From Cyclobacteriaceae bacterium (GTDB lineage Bacteria > Bacteroidota > Bacteroidia > Cytophagales > Cyclobacteriaceae), in NCBI GenBank assembly GCA_947458475.1, contig CANGZP010000005.1:1-57895 (forward strand): a stretch of 57,895 bases of DNA, read 5' to 3'. Position numbers and translations under genes: made by a program. Positions 45,078 to 50,640 of the stretch are shown here, piece after piece. How positions within the stretch are numbered: the first letter of the stretch is position 1; every line of letters begins with the position of its first letter. The notes under the pieces were generated by a model, which saw only the letters and a list, made by a program, of their open reading frames with translations, was not told the DNA's origin and made no database searches.

Positions 45078-45344
45078 AGTAGCGGTTGAATTTGAGTGCT
45101 AGATTGGTTGTAACTGGTTTGCTAAGATCAGACAAGAATCCTATCTGAGTTTTAGAAAACCTAGTTTGAAAGGTTCATTTCAAAAATAAGTAATCCTTCA
45201 GGGTATTCCGAATAAGCTTTTTGCTGGAATTCAGATTTTTAATTTGCATAGACTGGAAGAAGCTATTTTTTCGAATTTGAACAAATAAGTTACCAATACA
45301 TTGGCCTTATGCTTATCTTAATCCAATCATTTTTTATTGATCCC

Positions 45345-46430
45345 ATGAAAACACTACAACACCTTGCCTACGCACTTTTAGTTTTGGTTTTGGGCGCCCT
45401 AGTAGCGAAAGAAGGATCCTTTATTTTTGTACCGCTGGTTTGGGGAATATTTTTTGCCTTTGCCTTGTATCCGATATCCTCCTGGTTTGAACGAAGAAGA
45501 TTCCCCAGAGGGCTTGCAATATTTCTGAGTATCCTGGGCATTTCTATCCTAGCCTTTGGGATTTTTTACCTCTTGTTGAACCAAGTGTTTGGATTGATCC
45601 GTGAGATCCCCGAGATAGAAGCCAATATTTCTGGAAAAATGGCACGCTATTCCGAGGAACTCAACCTCTTCTTCGGTGAGGACTGGATCAGTTCGAATAC
45701 GCTTCCTAGCCTTGACTCCTTAGTTAGTTCATTCGATTTCAACAAAACCCTTTTTGCAACTGGAAAATCGCTTACGCTGATTGGGATTGTGCCTTTGTAC
45801 ATTTTTTTATTGCTCTATTACAAAGATTTTTTTGCCGAATTTCTGGTGCGGTATTCCTCCAAAAACCAGGAAACGGTACTTCATTGGGTCAATGATTCAG
45901 GACAAGTGATTCAGGATTATTTGGTGGGGATGATTCGTGTGACCGGAATCGTTGCCTTCTTGTCTGGTCTGTTTTTTTATTCCATTGGGGTTGAATTCTT
46001 TATTCTGTTTGCGGTATTTATTGCCCTGATGAATTTGATTCCCTTTGTGGGGGTTTTTCTTTCTTCCGTATTCGCGGTCGTCTATGTTTTTTTGACTACA
46101 GACTCCCTGATTTATCCCTTGCTTACTTTCGTGTGTTTGTGGGGGATTCAACTATTGGAAAACAACTTGATTACGCCCATGGTGGTAGGGTCTAAGGTGA
46201 AAGTAAATGCCTTAGCTGTCCTCATCTCCATTTTAATTGGCGGTTGGCTTTGGGGAATTTCTGGAATGATCTTGTTTATTCCCTTGGTGGGAATATTGAA
46301 AATCACCCTTGAAAAAAGTGAACAATTCAAAGCCTTTGGCTTTTTGTTGAGCGACGATGTCCAAGTCAACGAGGACTCAGAAAACTTCTGGAAGATTTTG
46401 AGAAAGATGATTGTGAAGCAAAAAAAGTAA
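45345..46430 (+). CDS. AI-2E-family transporter
   Basis: A 361-residue polytopic protein of the AI-2E (PF01594) family. It has a first hydrophobic pair (KTLQHLAYALLVLVLGALVAKEGSFIFVPLVWGIFFAFALYPISSWFERR), a large loop at about 85-140, and the C-terminal block LENNLITPMVVGSKVKVNALAVLISILIGGWLWGISGMILFIPL, the family hallmark. Members are reported as autoinducer-2 exporters or Na+/H+ antiporters. ATG 45345 gives MKTLQH; an ATG 12 codons upstream is possible but would prepend hydrophobic residues to the first helix. Confidence 0.92.
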   Translation: MKTLQHLAYALLVLVLGALVAKEGSFIFVPLVWGIFFAFALYPISSWFERRRFPRGLAIFLSILGISILAFGIFYLLLNQVFGLIREIPEIEANISGKMARYSEELNLFFGEDWISSNTLPSLDSLVSSFDFNKTLFATGKSLTLIGIVPLYIFLLLYYKDFFAEFLVRYSSKNQETVLHWVNDSGQVIQDYLVGMIRVTGIVAFLSGLFFYSIGVEFFILFAVFIALMNLIPFVGVFLSSVFAVVYVFLTTDSLIYPLLTFVCLWGIQLLENNLITPMVVGSKVKVNALAVLISILIGGWLWGISGMILFIPLVGILKITLEKSEQFKAFGFLLSDDVQVNEDSENFWKILRKMIVKQKK

Positions 46431-46443
46431 ATCAAAAAATAAG

Positions 46444-46518
46444 TCGGGGTGGCAGGATTCGAACCTACGACCTTCCCGCACCCTTGCGGGACGAGATACC
46501 TGGCTACTCTACACCCAG
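46444..46518 (-). pseudogene. tRNA-Pro-like copy with the anticodon arm replaced by a hairpin
   Basis: Minus strand, 75 bases. T-arm and 3' acceptor half are identical to the intact tRNA-Pro at 46576-46649, including seven bases of 3' flank. The 5' half has CTGGGTG in place of CGGGGTG (one acceptor mismatch) and a D-stem GAG/CTC in place of GCG/CGC, a compensated pair change. The anticodon arm is TCCCGCA-AGGG-TGCGGGA, a 7-bp stem with a 4-nt loop, 18 bases instead of 17, so no anticodon loop with U33 can form. It lies downstream of the terminator of the intact tRNA. Confidence 0.75.
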
Positions 46519-46522
46519 GAAC

Positions 46523-46552
46523 AAAAAAAGCCAACAAGTATTTGCTGGCTTT
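46523..46552 (-). terminator. Terminator after tRNA-Pro(TGG)
   Basis: On the minus strand AAAGCCA (46552-46546) pairs with TGGCTTT (46533-46527), with an inner CAA/TTG pairing, followed by a T7 run. It lies 23 bases past the tRNA-Pro 3' end. Confidence 0.65.
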
Positions 46553-46575
46553 AAGTGATTTTGATTTTAAATAAG

Positions 46576-46649
46576 TCGGGGTGGCAGGATTCGAACCTAC
46601 GACCTCCACATCCCAAATGTGGCGCGATACCGGGCTACGCTACACCCCG
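46576..46649 (-). tRNA. tRNA-Pro (anticodon TGG)
   Basis: Minus strand, 74 bases without an encoded CCA. Acceptor stem CGGGGTG/CACCCCG with discriminator A; D-stem GCG/CGC with GG in the D-loop; anticodon stem CCACA/TGTGG around TTTGGGA, giving anticodon TGG; T-arm GTAGG-TTCGAAT-CCTGC. It reads CCA and, by wobble, other proline codons. Confidence 0.95.
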
Positions 46650-46708
46650 AACTTTTTTATAGATTCAACTAGCCGTTGCTAATTGAGTGTTTTTTGTTTT
46701 CTTTCATT

Positions 46709-46775
46709 AAGGGATTCGAAACTGGGACCTTCCCGCACTGCTGCGGGACGCGATACCGGGCTACGCTACACCCCG
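46709..46775 (-). pseudogene. Truncated tRNA-Pro-like copy with the same hairpin swap
   Basis: Minus strand. The first 27 bases (acceptor 5' strand and D-arm) match the intact tRNA-Pro exactly. The anticodon arm is TCCCGCA-GCAG-TGCGGGA, the same 7-bp stem as the copy at 46444-46518 with a different tetraloop. The variable loop AGGTC and T-loop TTCGAAT survive, but the T-stem is broken and the 3' acceptor strand is absent. It therefore cannot form a complete tRNA. Confidence 0.7.
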
Positions 46776-46776
46776 A

Positions 46777-47150
46777 AATTGTTCCAAAGCGCTTTTGCTT
46801 TGAAGTGGTGCAAACATAGCCAAAAATACTTTCTAAGTACCTATCCCTGAAAAAAATTGTTTTTTAAGGCTCTAGTCGTGTTCAAGCACTTAGTATTTGG
46901 CCAAAAAAACAGGACGTATTTACACGAGCGATGCTATCAGTTGAAGGTCGGAGAGGAACTTTTCTAGCAATTCCCTTAACTTGCTGAAGGGCAAGCCAGA
47001 TCCAGACATCAATGCGATGAAGGAAAGTAAAAATTTCAAGCAATAAATTCCGGTCTATCCAATTGGGATAGTTTACTTATCCTTAAAGGTATTTAGATTA
47101 GATCGTTCAAGTTAAAACCCAATACATTTCACCAAATACTAGTTAAACCC
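46777..47150. other. Non-coding gap between tRNA cluster and S10 peptidase
   Basis: About 370 bases with no supported gene. The plus-strand promoter of the peptidase must be here but I cannot place it. No tRNA-like element beyond the truncated copy is visible. Confidence 0.5.
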
Positions 47151-48659
47151 ATGAAAAAACACATTTTCCTGCTATTTCTATTCCTATCAGGAATAAGTAT
47201 GGCTCAAACTACCAAAGAAGCTTCTACAAGTACCTCACCTAAAGCTCAGGTGGCGGAGTCCAAACAATCCGTAACATTGGACGGAAAAGTAATTCCACTT
47301 CTTGCAAAGGCAGGAACTATGGAGTTGAAAGACGAGAATAATCGTCCGATCGCTCTTTTTGGATTTACTGCCTATTTCAAAGAAAACCCAGAGAAAAACC
47401 GTCCCATTGTCTTTGCATTCAATGGAGGTCCTGGTTCTTCTTCCTATTGGTTGCACATGGGCGTAATGGGACCCAAGCGAATTGTAGTGGATGATCCCAA
47501 CTACAACGCTGCGGCACCTTACCAGCTAACCAACAATGAGTTTTCGATCCTTGATGTGGCCGATGTGGTCATGATGGACCCCGTGGGAACAGGTCTTAGT
47601 GTACCTATAGGTGACGCAAAGGGCGCTGATTTCTGGGGAGTGGATCAGGACATCCGCAGCACCAGCTTGTTTATCATGCAGTTTTTAAAAGAATATGGCC
47701 GACTCAATTCTCCCAAATACATTTTGGGTGAGAGCTACGGTACCTTCCGCAATGCAGGGGTGATGAATTACCTGTTGGACAAAGGCTATGCCTTGAATGG
47801 AGTGATCATGGTGTCTGCAGTTTTTGACCTGCGCACCCTGTTTTTTGCTCCAAATGAAGACTTGCCTTACAGCGTGTACCTGCCGACAATAGCTGCTACC
47901 AGCTGGTACCACAACAAGGTGACTGACAAAGGGAAGGATCTTCCTTCTTTTGTACAGGAGGTGAGAGAATTTGTTGAGAATGTATACGCGCCGTCCTTAT
48001 TTAAAGGTAACCGGCTTGCTGCCACAGAAAAAACTGAGATTGCTGCAAAATTGGAAGACTATACAGGCATTGCAGCCAAGGTATGGGAGCGTGCAGACCT
48101 TCGAATCACTCCAGGAGAATATTACCAAGAACTGCTTCGGGAAGAGGGAATGACTGTAGGCAGGTTGGATTCCCGTTACAAGGGGATCAACCTGGACCCA
48201 ATGGCCATGTCGGCCTTTACGGATCCTCAAAGTGATGCCATTTCACCGGCTTACACCATGGGTTTTTTGGATTATTTCCATGGGAGCTTGGGCGTGAGTA
48301 AAGATTTGCAGTATGCCACTTCTGCCTATGCCAAAGAAGGATTTAAATGGGATTGGAAGCACCAAGGAAATAATTTCTGGGGTGCAGATGCCGCTGTTAC
48401 CACCGTGCCTGACATGGCGGAAGCCTTGAGCAAGGATCCACACGTCGAGGTCTTGATCATGAATGGTTACTACGACTTGGCCACTGTATTTCATGGCGTG
48501 GAGCACTCGATTTCTCATATGGGTTTACCTGCTTCCGCTACCGACCGAATCAAGATGACGTATTACGAGGCGGGCCACATGATGTACACGCATTTGCCTT
48601 CTGCAAAATTATTCAGAGAAGACTTGAAAAAGTTCATTCAGGATACTGTAAGTAAATAA
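47151..48659 (+). CDS. Exported S10-family serine carboxypeptidase-like protein
   Basis: A 502-residue protein with signal peptide MKKHIFLLFLFLSGISMAQ. It has the S10 oxyanion/substrate motif NGGPGSSSYW at 91-100, catalytic Ser195 in ILGESYGTFR, Asp in IMNGYYDLAT and His in YEAGHMMYTHLPS. S10 enzymes remove C-terminal residues at acidic pH. It is a third exported peptidase in this window besides the M14 and S9 proteins, but lies in its own transcription unit with its own terminator. Confidence 0.93.
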   Translation: MKKHIFLLFLFLSGISMAQTTKEASTSTSPKAQVAESKQSVTLDGKVIPLLAKAGTMELKDENNRPIALFGFTAYFKENPEKNRPIVFAFNGGPGSSSYWLHMGVMGPKRIVVDDPNYNAAAPYQLTNNEFSILDVADVVMMDPVGTGLSVPIGDAKGADFWGVDQDIRSTSLFIMQFLKEYGRLNSPKYILGESYGTFRNAGVMNYLLDKGYALNGVIMVSAVFDLRTLFFAPNEDLPYSVYLPTIAATSWYHNKVTDKGKDLPSFVQEVREFVENVYAPSLFKGNRLAATEKTEIAAKLEDYTGIAAKVWERADLRITPGEYYQELLREEGMTVGRLDSRYKGINLDPMAMSAFTDPQSDAISPAYTMGFLDYFHGSLGVSKDLQYATSAYAKEGFKWDWKHQGNNFWGADAAVTTVPDMAEALSKDPHVEVLIMNGYYDLATVFHGVEHSISHMGLPASATDRIKMTYYEAGHMMYTHLPSAKLFREDLKKFIQDTVSK

Positions 48660-48870: not shown

Positions 48871-49092
48871 ATGTTCAACCCAATAGAAATAGACAGAAGT
48901 AATCTGACAATCATGGGAGTTAAGTTTTCCGACTTGAAATCCTTAGAGAGCACTGCAAACGCCCTGGGGAGTAATATGTTTGAAGGTTACGAACCGACTC
49001 CAAAAGGCATTGAAATTATAAGAGACTATGTTGCAGGAAAAATAACATTGCCTGAGCTTGTGGCATTTGCCAAAGAAAAAGCCTATGTCTAA
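48871..49092 (+). CDS. Class I Fic antitoxin (VbhA/FicA-like)
   Basis: A 73-residue protein in front of a Fic gene. It carries the inhibitory motif (S/T)xxxE(G/N) as SNMFEG at residues 34-39, whose Glu blocks ATP gamma-phosphate binding in class I Fic modules. The C-terminal part, PTPKGIEIIRDYVAGKITLPELVAFAKEKAYV, is the small helical antitoxin domain. Its stop overlaps the Fic start by eight bases, so toxin and antitoxin are translationally coupled with the antitoxin first. The base composition looks more AT-rich than the flanking genes. Confidence 0.88.
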   Translation: MFNPIEIDRSNLTIMGVKFSDLKSLESTANALGSNMFEGYEPTPKGIEIIRDYVAGKITLPELVAFAKEKAYV

Positions 49093-49699
49093 TTCTTACG
49101 AATACATAGATTCTGACTTCATCTACACAGACCCGAATACAGGACTTTTAAGGAATTTACAAGATATTTCAGACCCCGATGTTTTACTTTTTGTTGAGAG
49201 TGGTGTTGTAACCAAGCGACTTAAAGAACTTTACGAAAATCCAATAAAAATCAAGGGAGTTGACAGCCTTTTTGAAATTCATAGAATTTTATTTCAAGAC
49301 ATTTACGGTTGGGCAGGAAAAAAGCGGACAGTAGAAATTAGCAAAGACGGTAAGCAGTTCTTCCCTACTTCGCACTTTGAAAATGCTTTAAGATACATTG
49401 ACCAGTTAATGGCTGGGTTCAAGAAAATTTCGAAAAACAACAAAAAACTGCTAGCAGAGAAATTGGCAGAAGTTTTAGATAACGTCAATTATTTACACCC
49501 CTTTAGAGAAGGGAATGGACGAGCACAAAGGGAGTTTTTGAGACTGTTAGCGTTAGAAAAAGACTTGGCCCTAAATCTCAATCCGCCAGATAACAAAAGT
49601 GTTTTCGAACGCTATATGCAAGGAACAATTGAAAGTGATGTGAAGATATTGACTGAATTGATTTTTGAGCTTATTGATACGATTGACCGTACCCCTTAA
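49085..49699 (+). CDS. Fic-domain toxin (adenylyltransferase-type)
   Basis: A 204-residue Fic protein. The core motif HPFREGNGRAQR is at about residues 138-149, with the catalytic His, the acidic residue and the phosphate-binding GNGR complete, so an active AMP-transferase is expected. The flap GKKRTVEISKDGKQFFP lies upstream, and residues 15-45 form the usual N-terminal lead. ATG 49085 (MSNSYEY) is chosen over a start nine codons upstream. Class I Fic toxins of this type, e.g. VbhT and FicT, modify DNA gyrase or topoisomerase IV; the target here is unknown. Confidence 0.92.
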   Translation: MSNSYEYIDSDFIYTDPNTGLLRNLQDISDPDVLLFVESGVVTKRLKELYENPIKIKGVDSLFEIHRILFQDIYGWAGKKRTVEISKDGKQFFPTSHFENALRYIDQLMAGFKKISKNNKKLLAEKLAEVLDNVNYLHPFREGNGRAQREFLRLLALEKDLALNLNPPDNKSVFERYMQGTIESDVKILTELIFELIDTIDRTP

Positions 49700-49902
49700 A
49701 TTCGGTCTGGTCTAAGGTTGGCAAAATCGCTGATTTATAATAATCCAATAAAAAACAGGAAGTCAGAGTTCAAAGCATGTTGAATTCAACCTCAGGTAAC
49801 CGAAACGATTTAATCGCTTATTTCTGTAAATTAGAAGTGATAATGGATAAAAAGTGCCGCAAATAAAAGAGTTAGGTGCGATTCAATGACGACCGTAAAT
49901 TC

Positions 49903-50640
49903 ATGGAATTAACACTGTCAATATTATTCTTTTTACTTCTCCTTACTTGGAGCCTATTTAGGTCCAGAATTAAAGGAGTTGTCGGAGAGAAAAAGGTTTC
50001 ATTTATTCTAAATTTCCTTGATAGGTCAAAGTACAAAGTCATTAATAATATAGTGCTTAAAGCAGGTGATAAGACTATTCAAATTGATCATATTGTTATT
50101 TCTGACTTTGGAATATTTGTTATTGAGACAAAGAATTACAAAGGTTGGATTTTGGGAAATGAGAATTCTGATTTTTGGACCCAAGTAATATTTAAACGGA
50201 AGGAAAAGCTTTATAATCCGATACGTCAAAACTTAAGTCATATCTGGGCGTTGAAAAGTTGCCTTCGCGAATACCCTGATATAGAATATAAGTCCATCAT
50301 CGTATTTCCTCGAACAGCCTATATAAAAGTCAATACATCCACCGAGGTTATATATTCACACCGACTACTGAAAACGATTAAACGTTATTCGGATATAAAG
50401 CTAACGGAAGCTGACAAAGAGATCATCTTTAAAAAAATCATTTCTTTGAATTTGATTGAAACATATGACAGAAGTCAGCACATTAAATCAATTAAACAAA
50501 GGATAAAGAAAAGAGAGAGCGCAATAGCTGCAAACAAATGCCCTCAATGCGGTGACGATTTGATCATACGAAATGGAAAGTTTGGAAAATTCTTGGGCTG
50601 TACTTCATATCCTAAATGCAAATTCAGTCGACCTATTTGA
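49903..50640 (+). CDS. NERD-domain protein with topoisomerase-type zinc finger
   Basis: A 245-residue protein with one N-terminal transmembrane helix (about residues 4-20), a NERD domain (about 25-140) and a C-terminal topoisomerase-like zinc finger with four Cys (CPQCGDDLIIRNGKFGKFLGC...YPKC). The NERD core VVGEKKV, IQIDHIVISDFGIFVIETKN gives Asp62, Glu75 and Lys77, a PD-(D/E)xK-like set. NERD proteins are predicted nucleases, cited in DNA processing or defence. ATG 49903 is preferred; a GTG nine codons upstream is possible. Codons are strikingly AT-rich (many ATA, TTA, AAA), suggesting a different origin from the neighbours. Confidence 0.85.
   Translation: MELTLSILFFLLLLTWSLFRSRIKGVVGEKKVSFILNFLDRSKYKVINNIVLKAGDKTIQIDHIVISDFGIFVIETKNYKGWILGNENSDFWTQVIFKRKEKLYNPIRQNLSHIWALKSCLREYPDIEYKSIIVFPRTAYIKVNTSTEVIYSHRLLKTIKRYSDIKLTEADKEIIFKKIISLNLIETYDRSQHIKSIKQRIKKRESAIAANKCPQCGDDLIIRNGKFGKFLGCTSYPKCKFSRPI

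What the first reader, a model, noticed from the sequence alone, without database searches (positions are those of the whole stretch)
46444..46775. Two tRNA-Pro copies share the same anticodon-arm replacement, TCCCGCA-N4-TGCGGGA
Beside an intact tRNA-Pro(TGG) lie two derived copies in the same orientation. In both, the 17-base anticodon arm is replaced by an 18-base perfect 7-bp hairpin with a 4-nt loop (AGGG in one, GCAG in the other). Two independent replacements with the same stem but different loops are hard to explain by random decay. Either the hairpin is a small mobile palindrome with a preference for this tRNA, or a modified tRNA-like unit was copied. The result cannot decode, so a decoy, structural or processing role would be new. 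The flanking 46.4-46.8 kb shows no integrase or transposase.
Basis: seen in the sequence. Interest (0 to 1): 0.72.

Follow-up and report, generated by a model that had tools for sequence, protein, structure and literature searches.

The report
Hairpin-stuffed tRNA copies beside tRNA-Pro
Two broken copies of a proline tRNA gene carry a small DNA hairpin where the anticodon should be, and they seem to belong to a widespread kind of bacterial repeat in which a tiny nuclease gene sits beside a tRNA gene and the tRNA is copied in tandem with a hairpin placed in the copy.

Summary
In detail: tRNA-Pro(UGG) at 46575-46649(-) lies between two same-strand copies whose 17-nt anticodon arm is an 18-nt TCCCGCA-N4-TGCGGGA hairpin. 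It is not a Pro peculiarity. Such hairpins sit in tRNA copies across Bacteroidota, and in complete arrays a small GIY-YIG nuclease gene (UPF0213/SLX1-like, about 85 aa) lies between intact tRNA and copy. Of 50 loci fetched by nuclease sequence, 39 have a same-strand intact tRNA beside the gene; RAYT control 0 of 21. Of 42 downstream copies, 31 carry a CCCG..CGGG palindrome (intact tRNAs 2, flanks 5); both inner pairs are complementary in 27 of 31. Its place depends on the tRNA: anticodon arm in Val, Lys, Pro and most Ala, T-arm in Asp, Gly, Thr, Leu. At the orthologous Pro locus 8 of 11 genomes (own included) hold hairpinned copies, some with other stems; 3 have a lone tRNA. The window copies are best read as nuclease-less members of tRNA-anchored, homing-like tandem units. 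That the nuclease cuts where the hairpin sits is inferred. I found no Pro-linked nuclease in this genus.

The parts
46443..46518 (-). downstream hairpinned copy of tRNA-Pro; 3' end intact, acceptor with one mismatch, anticodon arm replaced
   Evidence: ARAGORN tRNA-???(aggg); sequence; 39.9-bit Rfam tRNA match at 46444-46518
46474..46491 (.). 18-nt hairpin TCCCGCA-N4-TGCGGGA in place of the 17-nt anticodon arm
46523..46552 (-). terminator-like inverted repeat (one mismatch) and T-run between intact tRNA and downstream copy; complete units elsewhere have a terminator plus the GIY-YIG gene here
   Evidence: read by eye; compare
46575..46649 (-). intact tRNA-Pro(UGG)
46709..46775 (-). upstream hairpinned copy of tRNA-Pro; 5' half kept, 3' acceptor strand lost (3' limit by eye)
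46731..46748 (.). 18-nt hairpin in place of the anticodon arm of the upstream copy
45309..46430 (+). flanking gene (AI-2E family transporter), anchor for the orthologous locus
47151..48659 (+). flanking gene on the other side (serine carboxypeptidase S10)

Best explanation
The window holds a nuclease-less array of a tRNA-anchored tandem unit that is common in Bacteroidota. A complete unit is: intact tRNA gene, usually a terminator, a GIY-YIG nuclease ORF of about 85 codons, then a second copy of the tRNA (3' part or nearly whole) with a palindrome, most often TCCCG..CGGGA, in one arm. SHOWN: the association, the same-strand order, tandem repetition of whole units, a place of the hairpin that goes with tRNA type, hairpin stems that vary in a paired way, purifying selection on the nuclease, exchange of arms between copies. 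INFERRED: the nuclease cuts the tRNA gene DNA at or near the arm where the hairpin sits; repair duplicates the tRNA-nuclease segment in tandem, as reported for phage SegB; the hairpin, a palindrome that ends the unit or is swapped in at the break, removes the cut site from the displaced copy and leaves it dead. In the Pro array of this window no nuclease ORF is present (lost, or supplied in trans); the two copies are leftovers of such events.
For: Complete units read in Flavobacterium, Maribacter, Fulvivirga and Algoriphagus (ORFs confirmed by profile) and in a Thermodesulfovibrionales MAG with tRNA-Asn. Profile hits in 57 of 90 Bacteroidota genomes and 68 of 71 of the genus. Same-strand intact tRNA beside the gene in 39 of 50 loci against 0 of 21 RAYT loci. 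Of 42 downstream copies 31 have CCCG..CGGG, against 2 of 42 intact tRNAs and 5 of 42 flanks; both inner pairs complementary in 27 of 31, reached by 0 of 2000 shuffles. Hairpin place by tRNA type. Nuclease domains cluster by tRNA type: 22 changes, shuffled mean 43.2, 0 of 200 as low. Median dN/dS 0.118 over 9 pairs, none above 1. L117: a Pro-Leu segment is duplicated; the Leu copy stays intact, only the Pro copy is hairpinned. Orthologous Pro locus: 8 of 11 genomes with hairpinned copies, 3 of 11 with a lone tRNA-Pro. Chimeric and shared composite arms in L128 and L110. Own genome: a nuclease ORF in its tRNA-Ala array.
Against: No nuclease ORF lies in the window array (the only PF01541 matches in the own genome are on contigs 25 and 14), and I found none beside a tRNA-Pro in this genus. 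The intact tRNA next to each unit should itself be a target unless protected; unexplained. 11 of 50 nuclease loci have no same-strand intact tRNA nearby; 11 of 42 copies lack the CCCG palindrome; by stem length alone (6 bp or more) copies and intact tRNAs differ little, 32 against 22 of 42. Many CCCGCA palindromes of this genome lie far from tRNAs. The tree is weak (81 columns, 9 of 86 inner branches starred), near-copies add to clustering, and the Ser and Asp groups do not cluster. The seed alignment came from tRNA loci, so the association may be overestimated.
Confidence: 0.6

Rival explanations
1. A generic mobile palindrome (REP-like, moved by the RAYT/Y1 transposases of the genome) lands in dispensable tRNA copies; the nuclease is a bystander.
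For: The own genome has 7 Y1_Tnp matches; CCCGCA hairpins also sit outside tRNAs, often after GCCTG; a second palindrome with a CAGGC tail is nested in the arm hairpin of Pro copies of two relatives (L109, L110).
Against: Of 21 RAYT loci, only 3 have a CCCGCA hairpin within 900 nt (L154, L145, L083); most of the others show other hairpin families, four (L138, L140, L142, L147) none. RAYT loci have no tRNA within 900 nt (0 of 21). A free palindrome does not predict a place that depends on tRNA type or the nuclease link.
Confidence: 0.2
2. Ordinary tandem duplication and pseudogene decay of tRNA genes; the hairpin is a chance or template-switch product.
For: Copies are truncated and many look dead; template switching makes perfect palindromes (recalled).
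Against: The same TCCCG/CGGGA stem base recurs in copies of several tRNA types and families; the Leu copy duplicated together with Pro in L117 is intact.
Confidence: 0.08
3. The hairpinned copies are functional tRNA-like RNAs (decoy, sponge or processing signal).
For: 5' half, T-loop and hairpin persist in several genomes; ARAGORN still scores some as tRNA-???.
Against: Upstream copies lack the acceptor 3' strand, and downstream copies in Flavobacterium and Maribacter lack the 5' third; the window units fold no better than shuffles.
Confidence: 0.07

Closest known systems
Free-standing GIY-YIG homing endonuclease SegB of T-even phages (PMC13096335; passages seen)
   Same: GIY-YIG gene beside tRNA genes; implicated in cutting in tRNA-containing sequence; promotes tandem amplification of the tRNA-segB segment, likely through microhomology between tRNA 5' region and segB 3' region
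   Different: Phage; no palindrome in a tRNA copy is mentioned in the passages seen. Here chromosomal, common in a phylum, an about 85-aa UPF0213/SLX1-like domain alone; the own ORF has no match in 50,697 phage records
REP palindromes with RAYT/TnpA-REP transposases (PMC3733652, PMC6006769; passages seen)
   Same: Nuclease gene with dispersed palindromes nearby; in G166 15 of 20 ATNCCCGC palindromes lie within 1.5 kb of a listed GIY gene
   Different: GIY-YIG, not HUH Y1; no GTAG or CGTC foot in the arm hairpins; palindrome sits inside tRNA copies
tRNA-targeting integrative elements (recalled)
   Same: Displaced 3' tRNA half beyond the insert, tRNA kept intact upstream
   Different: Complete units of about 345-420 bp hold a nuclease ORF, no integrase seen; the displaced half carries a foreign hairpin
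UPF0213 / SLX1 GIY-YIG nucleases (PDB 1zg2, 1ywl, 4xlg, 7cq2)
   Same: Sequence family
   Different: SLX1 is a repair nuclease (recalled); here multi-copy and tRNA-linked

Membership tests
Free-standing GIY-YIG homing endonuclease element (SegB-like) | GIY-YIG catalytic domain with conserved catalytic residues | tested here: met
   PF01541, E 1.1e-15 to 2.4e-17 in 3 proteins; Y5, R26, H30, E63 invariant in the 6 rows of A1; their catalytic role is recalled from I-TevI
Free-standing GIY-YIG homing endonuclease element (SegB-like) | Gene lies beside its presumed target gene | tested here: met
   39 of 50 loci, control 0 of 21. Not met in the window's own Pro array: no PF01541 match on its contig
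Free-standing GIY-YIG homing endonuclease element (SegB-like) | Presence/absence polymorphism at the target | tested here: inconclusive
   Hairpinned Pro copies in 8 of 11 genomes, lone tRNA in 3, but the nuclease itself was not tracked at an orthologous site
Free-standing GIY-YIG homing endonuclease element (SegB-like) | Double-strand cleavage in the target and biased inheritance | not testable with these tools
   needs enzyme assay and cross
REP / RAYT | HUH Y1 transposase gene flanked by this palindrome | tested here: not met
   RAYT genes exist; CCCGCA hairpin within 900 nt at 3 of 21 loci, other hairpins at most
REP / RAYT | GTAG or CGTC tetranucleotide at the hairpin foot | tested here: not met
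   arm hairpins of Pro and Ala copies abut tRNA sequence, e.g. ATCGCG-TCCCGCA, 25 distinct contexts
tRNA-integrating island | integrase gene and island-sized insert | tested here: not met
   window units are 126-132 nt apart without room for a gene; the complete units read hold only the nuclease ORF. The rest of the genome was not searched for integrases
Functional tRNA | cloverleaf with 7-nt anticodon loop | tested here: not met
   7-bp stem with 4-nt loop in both window copies; predicted folds are not cloverleaves

The most novel reading that the evidence does not exclude
A distinct class of very small selfish element: a GIY-YIG (SLX1-like) nuclease and a cognate palindrome, parasitising tRNA genes of at least eleven amino-acid types in Bacteroidota (and one Nitrospirota MAG). 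The palindrome is exchanged for a tRNA stem-loop at the cut, making the displaced copy immune; the pair works like a RAYT-REP system but with an unrelated nuclease. Palindromes clustered round nuclease genes even without tRNAs (G166) fit this.
Probability: 0.35. Interest if true: 0.9.

Novelty: new variant of a known kind. Interest (0 to 1): 0.74.

Why it matters
Small GIY-YIG genes of the UPF0213 type are widespread and, to my knowledge, mostly without a known role. A systematic link to tRNA genes, with marked tRNA copies, gives them a testable biology (tRNA-targeted homing or amplification) and explains a class of odd tRNA-like calls in Bacteroidota annotations. It would extend the phage SegB phenomenon to bacterial chromosomes and suggest a second nuclease-plus-palindrome system besides RAYT-REP.

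Tried and rejected
Rejected: (1) RAYT as mover of this hairpin: 3 of 21 RAYT loci have a CCCGCA hairpin within 900 nt; Y1_Tnp matches 65 of 72 genus genomes with no visible relation to the hairpin (G013 has the hairpin twice, and no Y1_Tnp match). (2) A Pro-specific palindrome: other tRNAs are hit. (3) Quadruplet-decoding tRNA (ARAGORN 'aggg'): no U33, copies often without acceptor strand. (4) Rfam: in 45500-47500 the hits to Flavo-1, ar9 and tmRNA are below gathering and judged chance; the copy at 46444-46518 does pass the tRNA cut-off at 39.9 bits in the genome search.

Led nowhere: regex for RAYT motifs found none and was replaced by coordinates. The script stopped at L168 after ten loci. 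The output was cut in the middle; counts come. One search listed hairpins only beyond position 1400 and so missed copies in some loci; redid it over whole loci and changed the count of lone tRNA-Pro from 4 to 3 of 11. Literature: nine full-text searches of the held PMC library listed no paper on GIY-YIG genes linked to tRNA genes in bacterial chromosomes; one search listed only 25 of 134 papers and only 15 of 408, so those two are partial. The one paper with 'GIY-YIG' and 'downstream of tRNA' was the SegB paper. Preprints and most subscription papers are not held.

Results against my reading: 11 of 50 nuclease loci without same-strand intact tRNA nearby; 11 of 42 copies without CCCG..CGGG; L281, L290 and L292 show no perfect hairpin of 5 bp or more in the aligned copy; stems of 6 bp or more occur in 32 of 42 copies but also in 22 of 42 intact tRNAs; genome counts of TCCCGN8CGGGA do not track nuclease number (G104 66 against 1 and G109 53 against 0 control, but GIY-rich G122 4 against 0 and GIY-free G126 11 against 0); none of 24 ATNCCCGC palindromes of G159 lies within 1.5 kb of its listed nuclease genes, of which 10 of 13 were listed; Ser and Asp nuclease groups do not cluster on the tree. 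Dropped before the count of 42: loci without an intact upstream tRNA and copies with alignment score under 50, out of 79 loci. In dN/dS 13 sequences passed the length filter and 9 pairs the distance filter. The 20 extra nuclease loci were chosen by me from the list, several because they were tandem arrays; the other 30 were loci given by that search. RAYT controls come mostly from the window's own small-genome clade, the nuclease loci from the whole phylum. L110 and L128 are the only loci whose copies I read after the recount.

Full report
OBSERVATION. On the minus strand the order is upstream copy (5' end at 46775), intact tRNA-Pro(UGG) 46649-46575, terminator-like repeat, downstream copy 46518-46443, between an AI-2E transporter gene and an S10 peptidase gene. 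Start-to-start spacing is 126-132 nt. The upstream copy keeps the tRNA 5' half and loses the 3' acceptor strand; the downstream copy keeps the 3' end. In both, the 17-nt anticodon arm is replaced by the 18-nt hairpin. The three units do not fold better than shuffled sequence (z -0.97 to -1.35).

THE HAIRPIN ELSEWHERE. TCCCGCA-N4-TGCGGGA occurs 10 times in the own genome (2.77 Mb, 188 contigs, 79% complete), and 16 of 58 searched genomes, own included, have it; the reversed control pattern gives 0 in all 58. The relaxed form CCCGCA-N2..8-TGCGGG gives 24 against 0 in the own genome. Copies sit in tRNA-Ala-like and tRNA-Pro-like units, in terminator-like stems and in plain intergenic DNA, often as GCCTG-hairpin (by eye). 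Neighbours found in genome contigs are named Algoriphagus, Cyclobacteriaceae or (probably misnamed) Spirosoma fluviale MAGs.

PHYLUM-WIDE PATTERN. A scan for hairpin plus T-loop (TCCCGNANNNNTNCGGGA-N4..12-GTTCGAAT) returned 69 stretches. By eye 8 of 69 look like chance hits without tRNA context (L161, L186, L187, L203, L204, L222, L223 and doubtfully L183). Of 95 matches, 77 (in 56 of 69 stretches) have exactly 9 nt between hairpin and GTTCGAAT, the distance of the anticodon arm, although 4 to 12 were allowed. Records include Algoriphagus, Flavobacterium, Maribacter, Fulvivirga, Mucilaginibacter, Ferruginibacter, Croceitalea, Saprospiraceae and a few of other phyla. In most Flavobacterium and Maribacter loci the copy is the 3' two-thirds of tRNA-Ala; where an intact tRNA-Ala(GGC) is seen it lies 100-440 nt upstream on the same strand.

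THE MISSING GENE. Reading these loci shows a small ORF between intact tRNA and copy. It is a GIY-YIG domain alone: PF01541, E 1e-15 to 2e-17 in three proteins; closest solved relatives are UPF0213 proteins and, weaker, SLX1. A profile from four such ORFs hits 36 of the 69 stretches. The ORF's stop codon is often supplied by the tRNA copy (TAG of TAGAGCG; TAA in the copied anticodon loop of tRNA-Asn in L162, by eye). In L196 whole units are repeated in tandem; in G146:C34 eight nuclease genes stand at 359-370 bp intervals. In Maribacter L208 and L214 units shortened to 112-118 nt lack the ORF: the form seen in the window. The own genome has one such ORF and a broken second one, both in its tRNA-Ala array on contig 25.

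TESTS. (1) Association: the profile matches 57 of 90 Bacteroidota genomes and 68 of 71 of the genus, own included. Of 50 nuclease loci, 31 have an intact same-strand tRNA upstream and 39 one upstream or just downstream; the RAYT control gives 0 of 21. All 126 distinct nuclease domains collected, which include stretches selected for tRNA context, give 94 with a same-strand tRNA within 600 nt, of 11 amino-acid types. (2) Hairpin: of 42 downstream copies aligning to their intact tRNA with score 50 or more, 31 contain CCCG..CGGG, against 2 of 42 intact tRNAs and 5 of 42 flanks; both inner pairs are complementary in 27 of 31, in six combinations, 0 of 2000 shuffles as good. So a hairpin, not a fixed sequence, is kept. 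By stem length alone the contrast is small: 6 bp or more in 32 of 42 copies and 22 of 42 intact tRNAs. (3) Place: Val, Lys, Pro and most Ala copies have it over the anticodon arm, Asn copies from there to the variable region, Asp, Gly, Thr and Leu copies in the T-arm; numbers per type are small (3 Asp, 2 Gly, 2 Thr, 2 Leu), the Asp loci come from three families (in L239 the inserted hairpin was seen, one search scored the native arm). (4) Specificity: on a tree of 89 domains, 65 with a tRNA label, tRNA type changes 22 times, shuffled mean 43.2, 0 of 200 as low; the tree is weakly supported, near-copies add to the clustering, and Ser and Asp do not cluster. (5) Selection: median dN/dS 0.118 in 9 pairs, none above 1. 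(6) Palindromes without tRNA: in G166, 15 of 20 ATNCCCGCNNNNGCGGGNAT palindromes lie within 1.5 kb of the seven listed nuclease genes (of nine), 0.7% of the genome, and G163's single one is 57 nt from a nuclease gene; four nuclease-free genomes have none. The pattern was chosen from two G166 loci, and none of the 24 copies in G159 is within 1.5 kb of its listed nuclease genes (10 of 13 listed). In the own genome 5 of 24 CCCGCA palindromes lie within 1.5 kb of the nuclease ORF, 0.12% of the genome.

THE PRO LOCUS IN RELATIVES. Of 30 loci anchored on the AI-2E gene, 11 show an intact tRNA-Pro(tgg). Eight have hairpinned copies (L106 own, L107, L108, L109, L110, L114, L117, L128); three have a lone tRNA-Pro (L125, L129, L135) (which corrects). 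Stems differ: TCCCGCA in L106-L108, TCCCGAT in L114, L117 and L128, and in L109 and L110 a second palindrome with a CAGGC tail is nested inside the arm hairpin. In L110 the upstream and the downstream copy share this composite arm, and in L128 one copy has a chimeric arm whose 5' part matches the intact tRNA and 3' part the hairpin: arms move between copies, so the shared stem of the two window copies needs no two events. In L117 a Pro-Leu segment is duplicated, both Leu copies are called intact and only the Pro copy is hairpinned. This is hard to explain by decay.

MECHANISM. The nearest described parallel is SegB, a phage GIY-YIG homing endonuclease beside tRNA genes, which promotes tandem amplification of the tRNA-segB segment, likely after cutting and recombination through microhomology between tRNA 5' and segB 3' regions (PMC13096335, passages). 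The units here have the same order, tandem growth, and fusion of nuclease 3' end to tRNA. I therefore propose tRNA-targeted homing-like units; the hairpin marks and removes the cut site in the displaced copy. The chimeric arm of L128, with its breakpoint in the arm, fits a break there. Cleavage, its site, and how the intact tRNA escapes are not shown. Whether the hairpin is the unit's own end or is recruited from dispersed palindromes is open; the turnover of stems favours recruitment or exchange.

LIMITS. The window array has no nuclease gene, and I found no Pro-linked nuclease in this genus among the loci examined (ARAGORN's 'Pro' in L292 is itself a hairpinned copy); Pro-linked ones seen are in other families (L249, L251).

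Noticed in passing
L136-L154, L105 (RAYT loci): Y1_Tnp/RAYT genes of this clade show at least four sets of flanking hairpins: TTGCTCC-GGAGCAA, GACCCGC-GCGGGTC, CAGCCAAT/CCCATGG types, ACCCCCGG-CCGGGGGT; no GTAG foot noticed by eye.
   Followed up: partly
L154:2314-2331: A TCCCGCAGAATTGCGGGA hairpin sits where a TTGCTCC-type hairpin might be expected (its flank resembles that of its neighbours): possible hairpin-for-hairpin exchange outside tRNAs.
   Followed up: no
L260:1947-2383: Array of about 68-nt units, each a T-loop plus ATCCCGACACGTCGGGAT, between GIY-YIG genes, with no tRNA called within 900 nt of them.
   Followed up: no
L291, L294, L295, L296: Dead tRNA-Ala copies hold two or three different palindromes at once, e.g. 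an insert CCTGCC..GGCAGG between T-arm and acceptor.
   Followed up: no
L128:1061-1120: Copy of tRNA-Pro with a chimeric anticodon arm, 5' part from the intact tRNA, 3' part from the hairpin.
   Followed up: partly
window 48871-49699: VbhA-like antitoxin and Fic protein genes overlapping head to tail.
   Followed up: no
window 49876-50640: NERD nuclease-related domain with topoisomerase-type zinc ribbon.
   Followed up: no
window 46148-46609 (-): A 153-codon open frame runs through tRNA sequence (VVGSNPATPTY); a spurious ORF.
   Followed up: no
L286: ARAGORN reports a tRNA-Ala(agc) whose anticodon arm is the hairpin CCCGATAGCAATCGGG: a hairpinned copy that would be mis-annotated as a rare tRNA.
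   Followed up: no
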